From Actinomycetota bacterium (lineage in GTDB: Bacteria; Actinomycetota; UBA4738; HRBIN12), in contig DASQWI010000016.1 of the NCBI GenBank assembly GCA_035640355.1, positions 1 through 64,000 on the forward strand: a stretch of 64,000 nucleotides of DNA, given 5' to 3'. This document shows positions 17,282 to 40,242 of the stretch, one piece after another (positions within the stretch are counted from its first letter, which is position 1; every line of letters starts with the position of its first letter). A program made the translations under genes and the position numbers. The notes beneath the pieces were generated by a model that was not told where the DNA came from, did not search any database, and saw only the letters and a list, made by a program, of their open reading frames with translations.

Positions 17282-17944
17282 GTGAACCTCTACTCCGGCA
17301 CCGTGACGTTCCTGTTCAGCGACGTCGAGGGAAGCACCGATCTGCTGAAGCGTCTCGGGGAGGGCACGTTTGCGACCGTTCTCGCGCAGCATCGTCGGAT
17401 CGTGCGCGAAGCATTCTCGGCTAGGGACGGCCGCGAGATCGACACCCAAGGTGACGCGTTCTTCTACGCGTTCGCCCGAGCCCGCGACGCCGTCGCGGCG
17501 GCGGTATCGGCGCAACGAGCGCTGGCCGGTCACGCGTGGCCCGAAGAAGGAGAGGTCCGCGTTCGGATGGGCCTGCACACGGGTGAGCCCGCCGTGGGCG
17601 ACGAGGGGTACACGGGAATGGACGTCGTGCGCGCCGCCAGGATTGCGGCGGTGGGCCGCGGCGGGCAGGTCTTGCTTTCGGAAACGACCCGCGCGCTCAT
17701 CGGACCAGACCTGCCCGATCGCGTCACGGTTCATCCGCTCGGCGAACGGCGGCTGAAGGACATCGAACGACCCGAACCCCTGCACGGGCTCGTCATCGAA
17801 GGCGTCCCGGGATCCGGCGACGGAATCGAGCTCGACGCGAGCGGCGAAACGGAACCGCGGTCCATCAAAGAGCAGATCTCTCGCATGATCGAGGCGAAGG
17901 TACTCCGCGAGCTGGAGCGGAGCCTCGAGGACGAGTCCGGCTGA
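17282..17944 (+). CDS. Single-domain class III adenylate/guanylate cyclase
   Basis: A 220-residue protein consisting almost only of a class III catalytic domain (residues 5-170). Metal-binding Asp14 is in FLFSDVEGSTDLL and Asp58 in EIDTQGDAFFYAF. The MGLHTGEP and GQVLLSETTRALI segments are typical. In GMDVVRAARI the usual transition-state Asn position is Val, a variation found in this compact sub-type. The C-terminal 45 residues (KEQISRMIEAKVLRELERSL) are probably helical. It should make cAMP or cGMP as a homodimer in the cytosol. A DUF1579-like gene follows 7 bp later. Confidence 0.88.
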   Translation: MNLYSGTVTFLFSDVEGSTDLLKRLGEGTFATVLAQHRRIVREAFSARDGREIDTQGDAFFYAFARARDAVAAAVSAQRALAGHAWPEEGEVRVRMGLHTGEPAVGDEGYTGMDVVRAARIAAVGRGGQVLLSETTRALIGPDLPDRVTVHPLGERRLKDIERPEPLHGLVIEGVPGSGDGIELDASGETEPRSIKEQISRMIEAKVLRELERSLEDESG

Positions 17945-23585: not shown

Positions 23586-24743
23586 TCAACCGGTCGACGC
23601 TCTGAACAGCTCCCACTCGCCGGGTACGCCTTTGAGGCCGGTCGAGCCGACCGGTTCGAATCGCAGGTCCGTACCTGTGGCGAGCTCCCGAACCGTCCGC
23701 GTCACGACAATCTGATCGTCGGTCGCCTCGTCCAAAACGCGTGAGGCGATGTGCACGCCGATCCCAGCGACGTCGCCATCGAGGATCTCGATCTCACCCG
23801 TATGGATGGCGGCGCGTAAACGGAGTCCGAGCTCCGAGACCGTGTCCATGAGCGCGAAGGCGCATCGGAGGGCCCGCGTCGGCGCATCGAATGTGGCGAG
23901 GATGCCGTCGCCCGTCGTCTTGACGAGATTGCCATGGAACCGCTCGACCTCGTTCCTCGCCGCCTGGTCGTGTCGGTCGAGTATCTTGCGCCAGTCGCGG
24001 TCCCCCACGGCAGCCGCCCGGCGCGTCGAGTCGACGATGTCTGTGAACAGAACAGTGGCGAGCACACGATCCACGTTCTCGGCTGCGTCGAGCGATCGGA
24101 TCTGCTCCTTCGTCCACGCGAACGCGTCGACGTATGGGCTGGTGGGTTCGTCCCCGGCCGGTTCGTACGACAGCAGGACGATGCCCGACGCGAACGCGCG
24201 AGTTTCGCGGAGCCGCATATAGGTGATTGGCGCCTTGGAACGGAACAGGCGCTTGCCGCTACCCAGGAGAACCGGGTAGACCGCGATCCGGTACTCGTCG
24301 ATCAAGCCGTGGTCCGTCAACGTATCGACCAAGTCGGCACTGCCGGAGATCAGAATGTCCCCACCCGGCTGGTCCTTGAGCTTTCTGACTTCCTCTGCGA
24401 CGTCTCCGCTCAGGAGCGTCGAGTTCTCCCACGCGAGCTCCTTGAGACTATTCGAGACGACGTATTTCGGAAGGCTGTTGATCCTGTCGGCCAAGCCATA
24501 GTCACGAGGAGCCGACGGCCAGAACGCCGCCCAGATCTGATAGGTCACGCGCCCAAGCAGAATCGCGTCGACGGCGAAGACCTCCTCCACCTTGAACCGC
24601 TGCATGTCCTCGGTTGCGTGCTGGAGCGCCCAAGCGTTCTTGCCGTCGGGGTGCTGTTCCTGCCCCGGCGCCTCCATGACGCCGTCGAGCGTCATGAACT
24701 CGGATGCGATCAACTTCCGCGTCAGGAAGGTCTCCCGCTGCAC
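23586..24743 (-). CDS. RibD C-terminal/DHFR-like domain fused to class III nucleotidyl cyclase
   Basis: A 385-residue two-domain protein. Residues 8-195 match the RibD_C/dihydrofolate reductase-like fold: ASEFMTLDGVMEAPGQ, ILLGRVTYQIWAAFWP, GDILISGSADLVDTLTDHGL and EYRIAVYPVLLGSGKRLF. After a linker (FAWTKEQIRSLDAAENV) residues 229-383 form a cyclase with Asp235 in VLFTDIVDST, Asp279 in VKTTGDGILATFD, and IHTGEIEILDGDVAGIGVHI. A TGLKGVPGEWELF tail closes it. Cyclases with this catalytic type are usually fused to alpha/beta hydrolases or ATPases, so the reductase-like partner is unusual. GTG 24743 is chosen as the last start before the conserved domain; the frame stays open to 24911. Confidence 0.82.
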   Translation of the reverse strand: MQRETFLTRKLIASEFMTLDGVMEAPGQEQHPDGKNAWALQHATEDMQRFKVEEVFAVDAILLGRVTYQIWAAFWPSAPRDYGLADRINSLPKYVVSNSLKELAWENSTLLSGDVAEEVRKLKDQPGGDILISGSADLVDTLTDHGLIDEYRIAVYPVLLGSGKRLFRSKAPITYMRLRETRAFASGIVLLSYEPAGDEPTSPYVDAFAWTKEQIRSLDAAENVDRVLATVLFTDIVDSTRRAAAVGDRDWRKILDRHDQAARNEVERFHGNLVKTTGDGILATFDAPTRALRCAFALMDTVSELGLRLRAAIHTGEIEILDGDVAGIGVHIASRVLDEATDDQIVVTRTVRELATGTDLRFEPVGSTGLKGVPGEWELFRASTG

Positions 24744-25785: not shown

Positions 25786-26724
25786 CTACCAGCCGATCTC
25801 GAATGCCCATGTGCCGGTGCCGATCGCGGGGTTCACCGGCACCGTGAGGACGACTCCGCCCACCGGCGCAACGATCTCCTCAACGAGGCCGCCGTACGGG
25901 TCGACGACTCGTCCCAGAACGTGACCGGCCTCAACTCTCTCGCCGAGCGTCGTCGCGTCCTCGAGAATCCCACCTCGCGCGGGCGCGACGATCCGAAATC
26001 CGCGTAACTCCTCCTGGCCGGACGTTGGGGCAACGTCTCCGGGAAGAGAACCGAGTGCGCGCAGGACGTACTCGACCCCCGAAGCCGCTCGCCGAACGGT
26101 TTCCGGCGAAGGTGGGAGTCCTCCGCCCGCCTCGATCAGGATCGACGGCAACCCGGCGCGCGACAGGCGAACGAACAGCGCGTCGTCGAGCAGGCTCGCG
26201 TCGAGTCCTTCGCCCGATCCGATGCGGTGCACGTACACGAATGGAGAGCCGTACGCGCTCGCCATCTGCGCGGCCGTCTCGTCTCCGTCGACCCGAAGCG
26301 TCCAATCGACCGTGTCGGACGGGACGCCCGCGGAATGCAGATCGATGAACGAGCCACCGCGGGCGGACATGATCTCGAAGAACCGCTCGTCCATCTCCCG
26401 CTCGAGATAGGTCGGGGCGAGCGGGTGCTCGCGGCTCAGCACGCCGAACCCGGGCACGTTCCCGATCGGCAACACGATGAGGCAGCCGTTGATCATCTCG
26501 GGCGAGAGTCGACGTTGGAGATCCATGGCGAGCAGCGTCGCATGCACCTCGTCGCCGTCGCGGGCGGCCATCATCCACACGACCGGGTCGCGCTCACGCC
26601 CACGGAGCACCGTGAACGGCACGTCGATCGAGTGACCACCCGGCAGCTCGCCGAGCAGGATCGTGCCCGTCGCGCGGAGTGGCCTATCGCCGGCGATAGC
26701 TGCGTCGAGCTGCTCGATGCTCAT
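25786..26724 (-). CDS. Succinylglutamate desuccinylase/aspartoacylase-family protein
   Basis: A 312-residue protein of the AstE/AspA zinc-carboxypeptidase-like family. The motif normally written HGDE is RDGDE here (Asp56 replaces the His; Glu59 is kept). The second zinc His is kept in FIDLHSAG (His130), and IEAGGGL is present. The C-terminal beta domain (RGGILEDATTLGERVEAGHV, VAPVGGVVL) resembles a biotinyl/hybrid motif found in this family. Loss of one zinc ligand may alter metal binding. Its ATG overlaps the stop of the upstream MerR-like cyclase (ATGA), so it is translationally coupled to a signalling enzyme. Confidence 0.82.
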   Translation of the reverse strand: MSIEQLDAAIAGDRPLRATGTILLGELPGGHSIDVPFTVLRGRERDPVVWMMAARDGDEVHATLLAMDLQRRLSPEMINGCLIVLPIGNVPGFGVLSREHPLAPTYLEREMDERFFEIMSARGGSFIDLHSAGVPSDTVDWTLRVDGDETAAQMASAYGSPFVYVHRIGSGEGLDASLLDDALFVRLSRAGLPSILIEAGGGLPPSPETVRRAASGVEYVLRALGSLPGDVAPTSGQEELRGFRIVAPARGGILEDATTLGERVEAGHVLGRVVDPYGGLVEEIVAPVGGVVLTVPVNPAIGTGTWAFEIGW

Positions 26725-27935
26725 CGAATGACCCGATAGAGAGCGACCGGACCCGGAACGCCTTTCAGGTCTGCGTCATCGATCCGTTCGAACGCGAATG
26801 ACGCGTGGCCGGCTGACTCGGCGACGACATCGCTCACAAGGACTTCGCCTGGGGCAGCGGCATCCGCGATCCGCGAAGCCAGGTTGACGGTCTGCCCGAA
26901 GACGTCGAGATCGCGTTCGATGACAGGCCCGGCGTGGACGCCGGCGTGTGACGAGAGCACTCCTTCGCCGTTCATGGTTCCGACGAGATCGAGCGCCGCT
27001 TCGACGCCGGTGGTCGGATGAGGCAGTTGCAACATCGCGCCGTCACCGAGGAGCTTCACGAGTCGCCCGCCGTGACGCGTGGCGGTGGCGTCAGCGAGCC
27101 GCTGGAGGGACGTCGCCGCGACGACCGCCGACTCGTCGCCGCGCTCGCGCGTAAAGCGCGTGAAGCTCGAAAGGTCCACGAATACGATCGCCGGCGGGCT
27201 CGGCGGCGCAGGTATCGGCGCCAACCCCTTGGTGGCAAGGAACCGCTCGAACCCCTCGACGATCCCGTTCACGCTCCGGTGCTCGAGGTACCGAGCGCTC
27301 AGCCACGTGAACATCTCCGGCGCGAGGTTCGTTGCCTTCGTGAGTCCGACGCGGACGTCGTCGGGAAACTCCTCCAGCTCACCGCGGAACAATCTTTCGC
27401 GCGCCGGCTTCGCGAGCTGCTCGTCCCAAAGATCCACCCAGCCGAGCAGCACGGCACGAACCCCTTGTGCCATCAACCTTGCCGCCCGGAGCAAGGCGTC
27501 CTCGTCCGGCGTCATTGACCATGCATCAAGGAAGCGTTCGAACAGCTCCTCCTCGTTTTCGTGGATCGGCGCTCCGGGATCGGGCTTGGGAAGGCCGAGC
27601 ACCTCGTAGACCGCGGGAAGCAGCTCGGCCCTCGGACCCGCGCTCGCCTGGAACTCCGCGAACGTCCGCCCGGATCTGGGCCCGGGCTCGTATGGAAGGT
27701 ACTCATCCGTGCGCTGGAACTTGAGGAATCCTTCGTTCGCGGCGCGCTCGATCGACTCGGCCGGCACGCCGGACCCGAGCAGAGCCGACACCATCTTGAC
27801 CACGAGCACCGCGCCGAACGTGAACCGGCCGCGCTCGTCCGGGGTGATCAGCCGAAGCCCGGCCAACCAATGGATGCGCTCCTCCGGACATGCCGCTTCG
27901 TCGGCAAGCTCGGCGGCGGAGTAGGCCCTCGGCAC
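26721..27935 (-). CDS. Class III nucleotidyl cyclase with MerR-like N-terminal domain
   Basis: A 404-residue protein. Residues 1-66 (SAAELADEAACPEERIHWLA, VPAESIERAANEG) resemble a MerR-type winged helix. Residues 90-235 form a helical regulatory region (RFLDAWSMTPDEDALLRAAR, ARYLEHRSVNGIVEGFERFL). Residues 245-402 are the cyclase, with Asp254 in IVFVDLSSFTRFT, Asp298 in LVKLLGDGAMLQL, and VFGQTVNLASRI supplying the Asn/Arg pair. The layout recalls mycobacterial cyclases with N-terminal autoregulatory domains. GTG 27935 is the start. It is the first gene of a coupled pair with the AstE-like gene and is divergent from the LigD-type ligase. Confidence 0.87.
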   Translation of the reverse strand: MPRAYSAAELADEAACPEERIHWLAGLRLITPDERGRFTFGAVLVVKMVSALLGSGVPAESIERAANEGFLKFQRTDEYLPYEPGPRSGRTFAEFQASAGPRAELLPAVYEVLGLPKPDPGAPIHENEEELFERFLDAWSMTPDEDALLRAARLMAQGVRAVLLGWVDLWDEQLAKPARERLFRGELEEFPDDVRVGLTKATNLAPEMFTWLSARYLEHRSVNGIVEGFERFLATKGLAPIPAPPSPPAIVFVDLSSFTRFTRERGDESAVVAATSLQRLADATATRHGGRLVKLLGDGAMLQLPHPTTGVEAALDLVGTMNGEGVLSSHAGVHAGPVIERDLDVFGQTVNLASRIADAAAPGEVLVSDVVAESAGHASFAFERIDDADLKGVPGPVALYRVIR

Positions 27936-37284: not shown

Positions 37285-40242
37285 TCAGGTTTGCGACGTG
37301 GCGACGCCCTCGAGCGAGCGCTCGAGAAACGTCTGCGCCTCGCGTGACCGTCGCCGCCGTTCGGCGGCCTCGTGCTCGTTGCCGCGGCGATCGGACACCT
37401 TGGCCAGCGAACGCCACAGCCACCCGCCGAGCTGACGGTCTCCGAGCTCCTCGGTGATCCGCACGGCCTTCATGAGGTCATCCTCGGCGCCATCGAGATC
37501 ACCGAGCTCGCGGCGGACGTCGCCGCGCTCGGCGATGGCGTCCGCGAGCTCCCACCGCGCACCGAACTCCTCGAAGATCGTGATCCCGCGCTCGATGCAC
37601 GGGAGCGCGTCCCGGAACCTGCCCAGGTCTTCCAGCACCCGACCGCGCTGAACGCACGTGATCCCGATGCTGAACTGGTCGCCGATCTGCTCCGCGAGCG
37701 TCATCGCGTCCATGCTCAGCTTGAGAGCCTCGTCGAGATCGCCTCGGCTATCACGACCGATCGACAGCGAGTTCAACGCCCGAACGCGCGACCACCCGTC
37801 ATCGGGATCCGCGACGTCGAGCGCCCGGAGCCAGATCGCCTCGGCCTCGTCGAAATCCTTCCGGTTCCACGGGACCCAGCCCGCGAACAGCAACGTGCGG
37901 GCGATCGCCCAGGGTTCTCCCATCCGCTCGGCAGCCTGGAGCGAGCGATCCAGGAGCTCCTCCGCCTGATCGAAATCCGCCTCGACGTTGATGGCGATGT
38001 CGCCCAGGAACCGCAGCGCGAGCGCGAGCGTGAACGGATCGTCGAGCTCCGTACCGAGCTCGACCGCACGCCGGCACTTGTCGGTGGAAGCGCGGTACTC
38101 GCCGAGCCAGTAGTGGGCCTCCCCCATCCCAGCCAGGGCACGGGCCTCGCGCACGCCCCATCGTTCCTCCGGTCCGCTCAGCCCGAGCGCGCGCCCGTAG
38201 TAGTCGAGCGCCGAACGGCTCTCCATCCGCCGCCTGGCGCGATCGCCGGCGGAGACCAGCGCGTCTGCCGCCCGCTCAGGCGTGGTCCGGTCGTCGGGAT
38301 ACAGATCAAGCGAGGCGACCGCGGCGAGCTCGAGATGGTCGGCGGCCCACGACGGGTGACCGGTCGAAAGCAACCGGTCGGCGATTGCCTCGTGCAGACG
38401 AACACGCTCCCGTTTGGGAAGGCTCGCGTAGGCCACGTCCTTCACGGTGGTGTGCCGAACCCGCCAGCGCTCGGAGGCGCGTTTGCCTTCCTCGTGAACG
38501 AGGATCTCCGCCTCCTCGAGCGCGGCGATCTCCTCCCGGGTAGCGCCGGGATCCACGACGAGCAGCTCTTCCAGGTCGAACGAGACGAAGAACGCCGACG
38601 CGCGTCGCGCGAGATCGCGGAGCCTCGGTGGCAGCGCGTCGAGGCGCGCCGAGACGGCCGCGTGCACCGTCGGCGGGATGGCCCCTCGATGCGACGGCAG
38701 CCCCGTCGCATCGGGCAGCAGCATGCCCGTCGTCTCGACGATGAAGAACGGATTGCCGTCGGCGCGCTCGGCGATCTGGCTCGCCTCGTCGTCCTCGATG
38801 CGACCACCCGCCGCCTGCTGAACGAGGTCGATCGACTCCTCCATCGTGAGCGGATCGAGCCGGATGGTGACGGCGTTCACGAGGCTCGCTCCCCAGGTCG
38901 ATCGCTTGTCGAGCAGCTCCGGTCGCGCGAGGGCAAGGATCATCACGCGGCGCCTGCCGTCGTTGGGCGTCGTCGCCAGTCGCTCGATCAGATCGAGCAT
39001 CGCCGGCTTGTAGGTGTGCGCGTCCTCGAAAGCGAGCACGTACGTCCGGTCCCGCGCGAGCGCATGAAGCAACGCGATCGTGCCCCCCTGCACCGCCTGA
39101 CCAAACGCCGCCTGTTGACGCTCGGCCGTCCCGAAGAGCAACGACAGTCTCTCGACGGTCGAGTCCGCGTCTGCTCCCTCGAGTGACGATCCGACGAGCT
39201 CGCGCAGCTTCACACGGATCACGTCGGGCGAATCGCTCTCGTCGATGCCGGCCAGATCACCAATGATCGCCGCCGCAGGCGCGAACGTGGCCGTGTCGGA
39301 GAACGCGCGGTCCAGGCCGCGCGCGACGGTCACGTCGTCGGCGAGACCGGCGAGGATCTCGTCGGCGAGGCGGGTCTTGCCGATGCCGGGCTCGCCGACC
39401 ACCGTCACCAGCGACGGACGGCCGGAGCTCGTAACGCGCGACAGGGTCTCGCGGACGATCGTGAGCTCGCTCCCTCTGCCAACGAAGGGGATCGTTCGGC
39501 GTCGCGACCTCATCGAGATCCCTTCGACCGGGAACCCGATCAGGTCGCTGGCGAATCCCTGGGCCGCGATCTCCCGGCGAGGCCCGTAGCTGACCGCGGG
39601 ATCGGTAAGCGCGAACGTCGTCTCGCCGACCAGAACCTCCCCCGGATCGGCGGCGTCCTGCAGGCGCGCGGCGGCATTCACGACCGGTCCGGTCACCAGG
39701 AGCTGCCCGGCGGGCCCGATCCCCATGGCCACCTCGCCGGATGCGATCCCGATGTGAACGTCGATCGGCTGGGGCAGCTCGAGCGACTCGGAGAGCCTTC
39801 CCATCCGGCCCCGGATGGCCAGGCCGGCGCGAACGGCGCGAAGAGCATCGTCCTCGTGCACGGTCGGGAGCCCGAACACTGCCATCACGGCGTCGCCGAT
39901 GAACTTCTCGGGCCTGCCCCGGAGCGCAAGCAGCTCCTCGCTGGCCACGTCGAAGAAGCGTCCGAGCACCTCGCGGGCGCGCTCGGGATCCAGGCGCTGG
40001 GCCAGACCGGTCGAGTCCACCAGGTCGGCGAACACGACCGTGACCATCTTCCGCTCGTCCGTCCCGAGCGATGTCTCGACCGGCGCGCCGCAATTGGCGC
40101 AGAACCGGGCGCGCTCGGAGAGCGGGTCCCCGCAGACGGCGCACATCGGTGGCGCGGCGGATGTCGTCACCCCGGCATCATCTCGCGTCGGGGTGACGGA
40201 CGGCCGAACGTCAGGCGTCGCGGACGAAACTCCCCTCTCCAC
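37285..40242 (-). CDS. Zinc-ribbon / class III cyclase / AAA ATPase / TPR regulatory protein
   Basis: A 985-residue multidomain protein. Near residue 33 a double zinc ribbon reads CAVCGDPLSERARFCANCG. Residues 65-235 are a cyclase (VTVVFADLVDSTGLAQRLDP; KFIGDAVMAVFGLP). Residues 250-560 are an AAA/NACHT-like ATPase with Walker A VGEPGIGKTRLADE, and a Walker B-like YVLAFEDAHTY. The remaining C-terminal half is TPR-like helical repeats (e.g. LRFLGDIAINVEADFDQAEE). Such proteins are common in actinobacteria; the ligand and output are unknown. GTG 40242 is the outermost start; a GTG at about residue 24 is also possible. It starts 36 bp after ftsH on the same strand. Confidence 0.88.
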   Translation of the reverse strand: MERGVSSATPDVRPSVTPTRDDAGVTTSAAPPMCAVCGDPLSERARFCANCGAPVETSLGTDERKMVTVVFADLVDSTGLAQRLDPERAREVLGRFFDVASEELLALRGRPEKFIGDAVMAVFGLPTVHEDDALRAVRAGLAIRGRMGRLSESLELPQPIDVHIGIASGEVAMGIGPAGQLLVTGPVVNAAARLQDAADPGEVLVGETTFALTDPAVSYGPRREIAAQGFASDLIGFPVEGISMRSRRRTIPFVGRGSELTIVRETLSRVTSSGRPSLVTVVGEPGIGKTRLADEILAGLADDVTVARGLDRAFSDTATFAPAAAIIGDLAGIDESDSPDVIRVKLRELVGSSLEGADADSTVERLSLLFGTAERQQAAFGQAVQGGTIALLHALARDRTYVLAFEDAHTYKPAMLDLIERLATTPNDGRRRVMILALARPELLDKRSTWGASLVNAVTIRLDPLTMEESIDLVQQAAGGRIEDDEASQIAERADGNPFFIVETTGMLLPDATGLPSHRGAIPPTVHAAVSARLDALPPRLRDLARRASAFFVSFDLEELLVVDPGATREEIAALEEAEILVHEEGKRASERWRVRHTTVKDVAYASLPKRERVRLHEAIADRLLSTGHPSWAADHLELAAVASLDLYPDDRTTPERAADALVSAGDRARRRMESRSALDYYGRALGLSGPEERWGVREARALAGMGEAHYWLGEYRASTDKCRRAVELGTELDDPFTLALALRFLGDIAINVEADFDQAEELLDRSLQAAERMGEPWAIARTLLFAGWVPWNRKDFDEAEAIWLRALDVADPDDGWSRVRALNSLSIGRDSRGDLDEALKLSMDAMTLAEQIGDQFSIGITCVQRGRVLEDLGRFRDALPCIERGITIFEEFGARWELADAIAERGDVRRELGDLDGAEDDLMKAVRITEELGDRQLGGWLWRSLAKVSDRRGNEHEAAERRRRSREAQTFLERSLEGVATSQT

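What the first reader, a model, noticed from the sequence alone, without database searches (positions are those of the whole stretch)
23586..24743. RibD/DHFR-like domain fused to a class III nucleotidyl cyclase
The N-terminal reductase-like domain and C-terminal cyclase are in one continuous frame with catalytic Asp235 and Asp279 in place. Cyclases of this catalytic type usually carry hydrolase or ATPase partners. A pteridine- or nucleotide-binding domain could let the enzyme report folate, flavin precursor or NADPH status.
Basis: partly seen in the sequence, partly recalled or inferred. Interest (0 to 1): 0.65.

Follow-up and report, generated by a model that had tools for sequence, protein, structure and literature searches.

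The report
DHFR-like domain fused to adenylate cyclase
One soil-bacterial gene encodes a cAMP-making enzyme joined to a domain shaped like an NADPH-dependent reductase; the same joined gene recurs in a dozen other genomes, so it is a real and, as far as I could search, undescribed way of wiring an input onto a cAMP switch, with the input still unknown.

Summary
Confirmed. ORF 23586-24743 (-) encodes a 385-aa protein: RibD_C/DHFR-fold domain (residues 9-196), a 27-residue linker, and a class III cyclase domain (224-383). It is not a frame artefact. The same fusion, 55-66% identical over full length, occurs in eight further genomes, plus two copies cut by contig ends and two broken by single deletions. 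Submitters label these genomes Actinobacteria, Acidimicrobiia and Chloroflexi. Both halves are under purifying selection. The cyclase belongs to the LipJ/Rv1900c type, whose relatives here (27 of 29) carry an alpha/beta hydrolase instead. It keeps both metal Asp (D235, D279), the ATP-type Lys/Asp pair (K275, D324), His331 in the Asn position as in Rv1900c, and Arg335. The reductase half is of the YyaP/'dihydrofolate reductase family protein' type, not the riboflavin enzyme RibD: the genome has a separate, much stronger RibD_C match. Best reading: a soluble adenylate cyclase in which a DHFR-fold module has replaced the hydrolase as input or dimerisation domain, probably binding NADP(H). NADPH, pterin or flavin sensing is plausible but untested. 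New variant of a known kind.

The parts
23586..24743 (-). RibD_C/DHFR-like - class III cyclase fusion gene, 385 aa plus stop; GTG start at 24743 (relatives start about 7-8 residues later)
24156..24719 (-). RibD_C / DHFR-fold domain, residues 9-196
   Evidence: Pfam PF01872 E 2.6e-25; PDB 8jsv, 2gd9
24543..24554 (-). GRVT (64-67), DHFR-like nucleotide-binding motif (GRxT), Gly and Arg invariant in the 19-sequence alignment; NADP(H) contact inferred
   Evidence: weak alignment to E. coli DHFR GRHT
24339..24344 (-). Gly134-Ser135, position of the Gly-Gly loop of DHFR-fold reductases; Gly invariant
24075..24155 (-). linker residues 197-223 with FAWTxEQ-like motif conserved in the fused family and predicted helix 212-222
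   Evidence: alignment; model
23595..24074 (-). class III cyclase domain, residues 224-383, LipJ/Rv1900c type
24039..24041 (-). Asp235, metal-binding residue 1
23919..23921 (-). Lys275, ATP-type substrate residue (Asn in Rv1900c)
23907..23909 (-). Asp279, metal-binding residue 2
23772..23774 (-). Asp324, ATP-type substrate residue
23751..23753 (-). His331 in the transition-state Asn position (His in Rv1900c; Asn in the G641 homologue)
23739..23741 (-). Arg335, transition-state Arg

Best explanation
A soluble, homodimeric adenylate cyclase of the LipJ/Rv1900c type whose usual N-terminal alpha/beta-hydrolase has been replaced by a YyaP-type DHFR-fold domain. The DHFR-fold domain holds the two cyclase domains together and, by binding NADP(H) and possibly a small substrate, changes their arrangement through the conserved linker helix, so that cAMP output follows the ligand state. 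Shown by computation: the fusion, its recurrence, purifying selection on both halves, the complete ATP-type cyclase residue set, and the DHFR fold. Inferred: ATP as substrate, dimerisation, NADP(H) binding, and regulation of the cyclase by the ligand. Unknown: the ligand.
For: Continuous frame and domain hits. Same architecture in G003, G052, G398, G399, G400, G560, G632, G641, with partial or broken copies in G013, G016, G401, G695. dN/dS 0.09-0.29 in the reductase half and 0.09-0.25 in the cyclase half. D235, K275, D279, D324 and R335 invariant wherever the copies cover them; position 331 is His, with Asn in one. In 29 hydrolase-cyclase relatives the K site varies (K in 13) and the D site varies (D in 19), so the fused clade keeps the ATP-type K-D pair more strictly. 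Lys/Asp specify ATP in adenylate cyclases (PMC4215837); Rv1900c shows that His can replace Asn (PMC4886424). Rv1900c and DHFR-like structures are the best fold matches. GRxT, Ser97 and Gly134, DHFR nucleotide-loop positions, are conserved. The genome has 13 cNMP-binding domains as possible cAMP readers.
Against: No biochemical data. NADP(H) binding rests on motif positions; the direct profile comparison with E. coli DHFR was weak (hhalign probability 1.2%). pTM is 0.57, so the relative placement of the domains is not predicted. Two of 13 copies are broken by deletions, so the gene is dispensable, unless those are assembly errors.
Confidence: 0.5

Rival explanations
1. The DHFR-like domain is only a dimerisation or stability scaffold; it binds nothing relevant, and cyclase activity is constitutive or set by expression.
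For: LipJ-type cyclases usually have a different N-terminal domain (hydrolase in 27 of 29), which suggests the partner is swappable. Class III cyclases are active as dimers (PMC4886424). Thermotoga DHFR, a fold match, is a dimer (own knowledge).
Against: Nucleotide-loop residues GR and Gly134 stay invariant and the domain is under purifying selection; a family-specific EHRxGxN loop is conserved. A pure scaffold would not need these.
Confidence: 0.22
2. A bifunctional enzyme: the reductase half turns over a small molecule with NADPH and the cyclase half is a co-located output, reporting flux rather than a bound ligand.
For: The reductase half is close (54%) to free-standing 'dihydrofolate reductase family' proteins of unknown substrate. 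Fold relatives include SacH, acting in safracin biosynthesis (7xh2).
Against: No substrate known to me for this subfamily; the putative substrate loop 26-35 is poorly modelled.
Confidence: 0.15
3. The reductase half is a working dihydrofolate reductase (as reported for the RibD-like protein Rv2671) and the cyclase reads folate status.
For: The genome has no match to the FolA family PF00186, so one of its RibD_C paralogues could supply this activity.
Against: Only a few related genomes carry the fusion (4 of 27 in the class), so it cannot be the lineage's general DHFR; 11 other RibD_C domains are available. Genomes using ThyX can do without FolA (own knowledge).
Confidence: 0.08
4. Assembly artefact or decayed gene without function.
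For: Many homologues are metagenome bins, and two copies carry 119-bp and 40-bp deletions.
Against: Nine full-length intact copies, low dN/dS, all catalytic residues kept.
Confidence: 0.02

Closest known systems
LipJ / Rv1900c (alpha/beta hydrolase-adenylate cyclase; NCBIfam NF058673; PDB 1ybt, 1ybu)
   Same: Cyclase domain: best PDB hit, 45-46% identity in the structure alignment; two metal Asp; His in the Asn position; Arg; two-domain layout with an enzyme-like N-terminal domain.
   Different: N-terminal domain is a DHFR fold, not an alpha/beta hydrolase; Lys275 instead of Asn; NF058673 score 180.8 against a cut-off of 800.
YyaP / 'dihydrofolate reductase family protein' (PDB 2gd9, 8jsv; Pfam RibD_C)
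   Same: Same domain and fold; nearest free-standing homologue 54-57% identical (L055, G185).
   Different: Those are single-domain proteins; the fused family has an EHRxGxN loop that the closest free-standing one lacks, and a C-terminal cyclase.
RibD (riboflavin deaminase-reductase)
   Same: Shares the Pfam RibD_C fold.
   Different: No deaminase domain; a separate RibD match exists in the genome (179.9 bits against 91.2 for this domain).
Ma1120 (class III cyclase, M. avium; PDB 4wp9, 5d15)
   Same: Class III catalytic fold, K-D substrate pair.
   Different: Ala in the Asn position and about 33% identity.

Membership tests
Class III nucleotidyl cyclase (catalytic domain) | Pfam Guanylate_cyc above its gathering score and catalytic-domain fold | tested here: met
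   31.8 bits against 21.9; fold match to Rv1900c, TMt 0.94
Class III nucleotidyl cyclase (catalytic domain) | Two metal-binding Asp | tested here: met
   D235, D279, invariant
Class III adenylate (not guanylate) cyclase | Lys and Asp substrate residues | tested here: met
   K275 and D324, invariant in fused copies
Class III nucleotidyl cyclase (catalytic domain) | Asn-Arg transition-state pair | tested here: inconclusive
   Arg335 kept; Asn is His331 as in Rv1900c, Asn in G641
Class III adenylate cyclase | cAMP formation in vitro | not testable with these tools
   needs protein
LipJ (bifunctional lipase/adenylate cyclase, NF058673) | Whole-protein score above 800 bits, with hydrolase domain | tested here: not met
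   180.8 bits, cyclase part only; no Abhydrolase hit
RibD_C / YyaP-type DHFR-like domain | Pfam RibD_C above gathering score and DHFR fold | tested here: met
   89.8 bits against 24.1; 8jsv, 2gd9 matches
RibD_C / DHFR-like reductase | NADP(H) binding and reductase activity | not testable with these tools
   motif positions conserved only
RibD (riboflavin biosynthesis) | N-terminal deaminase plus reductase | tested here: not met
   no deaminase domain; other locus is the strong match
DHFR (FolA, PF00186) | Match to DHFR_1 | tested here: not met
   no PF00186 hit in the protein or genome

The most novel reading that the evidence does not exclude
The first described family of adenylate cyclases gated by a DHFR-fold NADP(H)- or pterin-binding domain: a direct redox/cofactor-to-cAMP sensor that arose by replacing the hydrolase of a LipJ-type cyclase and then spread between lineages.
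Probability: 0.3. Interest if true: 0.65.

Novelty: new variant of a known kind. Interest (0 to 1): 0.45.

Why it matters
Actinobacteria and their soil relatives carry many class III cyclases whose input signals are mostly unknown. A conserved fusion to a domain with a defined cofactor fold gives a concrete, cheap hypothesis for one input (NADP(H) or a pterin-like ligand). It also offers a handle on the large, functionally unassigned 'dihydrofolate reductase family' proteins: fused to a cyclase, ligand binding may be read out as cAMP.

Tried and rejected
Riboflavin-pathway role: rejected, since another locus is the RibD match. Frameshift or assembly artefact: rejected by recurrence. Conserved operon: neighbourhoods differ. 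In genus g3 an alpha/beta hydrolase gene follows by a few bases (L009, L090, L091); in L011 a second cyclase gene follows by about 40 bp; neither is shared by the others. Viral or plasmid association: no relative in the viral scan, and no plasmid record covers 80% of the query. A G399 hit spanning 4-263 looked like a second fusion but is a free-standing RibD_C protein. Literature searches for the combination found nothing relevant (open-licence papers only). Comparison of the reductase half with E. coli DHFR was too weak to prove the nucleotide site. Single origin of the fusion: favoured but not shown (cyclase tree 32/73, reductase tree 69/64).

Full report
Observation. The frame 24743..23586 on the minus strand is open over 385 codons. 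Pfam finds RibD_C at residues 9-190 (E 2.6e-25) and Guanylate_cyc at 229-376 (E 1.3e-7), both above their curated cut-offs. The start is uncertain by about 7-8 residues: GTG at 24743 is available, while most relatives start near window residue 8.

Recurrence. Searching public genomes brought the same two-domain protein in AC_66 'Actinobacteria' (L009, the same sequence as G003), CF_16 and CF_167 'Chloroflexi' (L010, L013) and two Acidimicrobiia bins (L011, L012). Further copies are in G052, G013, G016 and in G560, G632, G641, G695. Taxon names are the submitters'. Together with the window this is 13 genomes. Nine have full-length copies in one frame; the start of the G632 copy is unclear. Two are cut by a contig end (G016, where only linker and cyclase are seen, and G695). 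Two are interrupted by single deletions: 119 bp spanning the linker and start of the cyclase in G013, 40 bp in the cyclase in G401. Frequencies: 4 of 27 in the window's class, 6 of 177 in the class of G398, 2 of 138 in the order of G400, 1 of 3 in the class of G052. It is rare but recurrent. No genome was seen to carry the two halves as neighbouring intact genes.

Selection. Pairwise NG86 dN/dS is 0.09-0.29 for the reductase half and 0.09-0.25 for the cyclase half; the more divergent pairs are near saturation at synonymous sites.

Cyclase half. It is of the Rv1900c/LipJ type (NF058673 180.8 bits on the cyclase part; 1ybt E 5e-42; fold match 1ybu TMt 0.94). Metal residues D235/D279, substrate residues K275/D324 and Arg335 are invariant in all fused copies that cover them; position 331 is His, except Asn in G641. 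Rv1900c also has His there and is an accepted cyclase (PMC4886424). The Lys/Asp pair marks ATP users (PMC4215837). In 29 hydrolase-cyclases from related genomes the Lys site is Lys in only 13 and the Asp site Asp in 19, so the fused clade is stricter. 27 of these 29 carry Abhydrolase_1, which confirms what the usual partner is.

Reductase half. Nearest solved structures are a DHFR-like enzyme of Leptospira (8jsv) and B. subtilis YyaP (2gd9). The genome has 12 RibD_C domains; the true RibD candidate is elsewhere (179.9 bits), and no FolA-type DHFR was found. Positions that contact NADPH in DHFRs (own knowledge) are conserved: GRxT at 64-67, Ser97, Gly134. A loop EHRxGxN (residues 30-36) is typical of the fused family and missing in the closest free-standing protein (L055). 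The model is unsure of this loop.

Origins. In the cyclase tree all fused copies plus one hydrolase-cyclase (L030) form a 100/100 clade nested among hydrolase-cyclases. In the reductase tree all fused copies plus one free-standing protein (L055) form a 91/93 clade. The simplest history is replacement of a hydrolase by a YyaP-type domain, followed by transfer between lineages; a single origin is not formally shown.

Mechanism. The best reading is a soluble adenylate cyclase with a DHFR-fold input domain. The linker carries a FAWTxEQ-like motif conserved in the family and a predicted helix at 212-222, a natural route for coupling. The genome has 13 cNMP-binding domains that could read cAMP. Dimerisation, NADP(H) binding and gating are inferred, not shown. 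Gene neighbours do not point to a ligand: they differ between genomes.

Novelty. Class III cyclases with many partner domains are known (746 Pfam architectures reported in 2016, PMC4886424), so this is a new variant of a known kind. I found no paper on this combination in the open-licence library; subscription papers and architecture databases could not be searched.

Noticed in passing
26721-27935 (-): A second class III cyclase gene (404 aa) 2 kb from the fusion, with an N-terminal region weakly like the regulator FtsR. A similar 404-aa cyclase gene directly follows the fusion in L011 (4728-5942), and another lies beside a free-standing RibD_C gene in L092.
   Followed up: partly
17285-17758 (+) and 39727-40056 (-): Two more cyclase-like stretches, so the 64-kb window holds four; the genome search with this protein gave 30 matches, most of them cyclase domains.
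   Followed up: no
whole genome G000: No FolA-type DHFR (PF00186) was found in a genome rated 97% complete, beside 12 RibD_C domains; one of these may serve as DHFR, or ThyX may make it dispensable.
   Followed up: no
L090 4973-5999; L013 22-1139: Two homologues are interrupted by single clean deletions (119 and 40 bp); decay or assembly collapse cannot be told apart without reads.
   Followed up: partly
L009 5459-6163, L090 6003-6830, L091 548-1375: In genus g3 an alpha/beta hydrolase gene follows the fusion by a few bases, the same fold that other LipJ-type cyclases carry fused.
   Followed up: partly
L073 (G049:C136): The nearest cyclase domain outside the fused family (64-68% identical) sits in a hydrolase-cyclase, a possible ancestor form.
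   Followed up: partly
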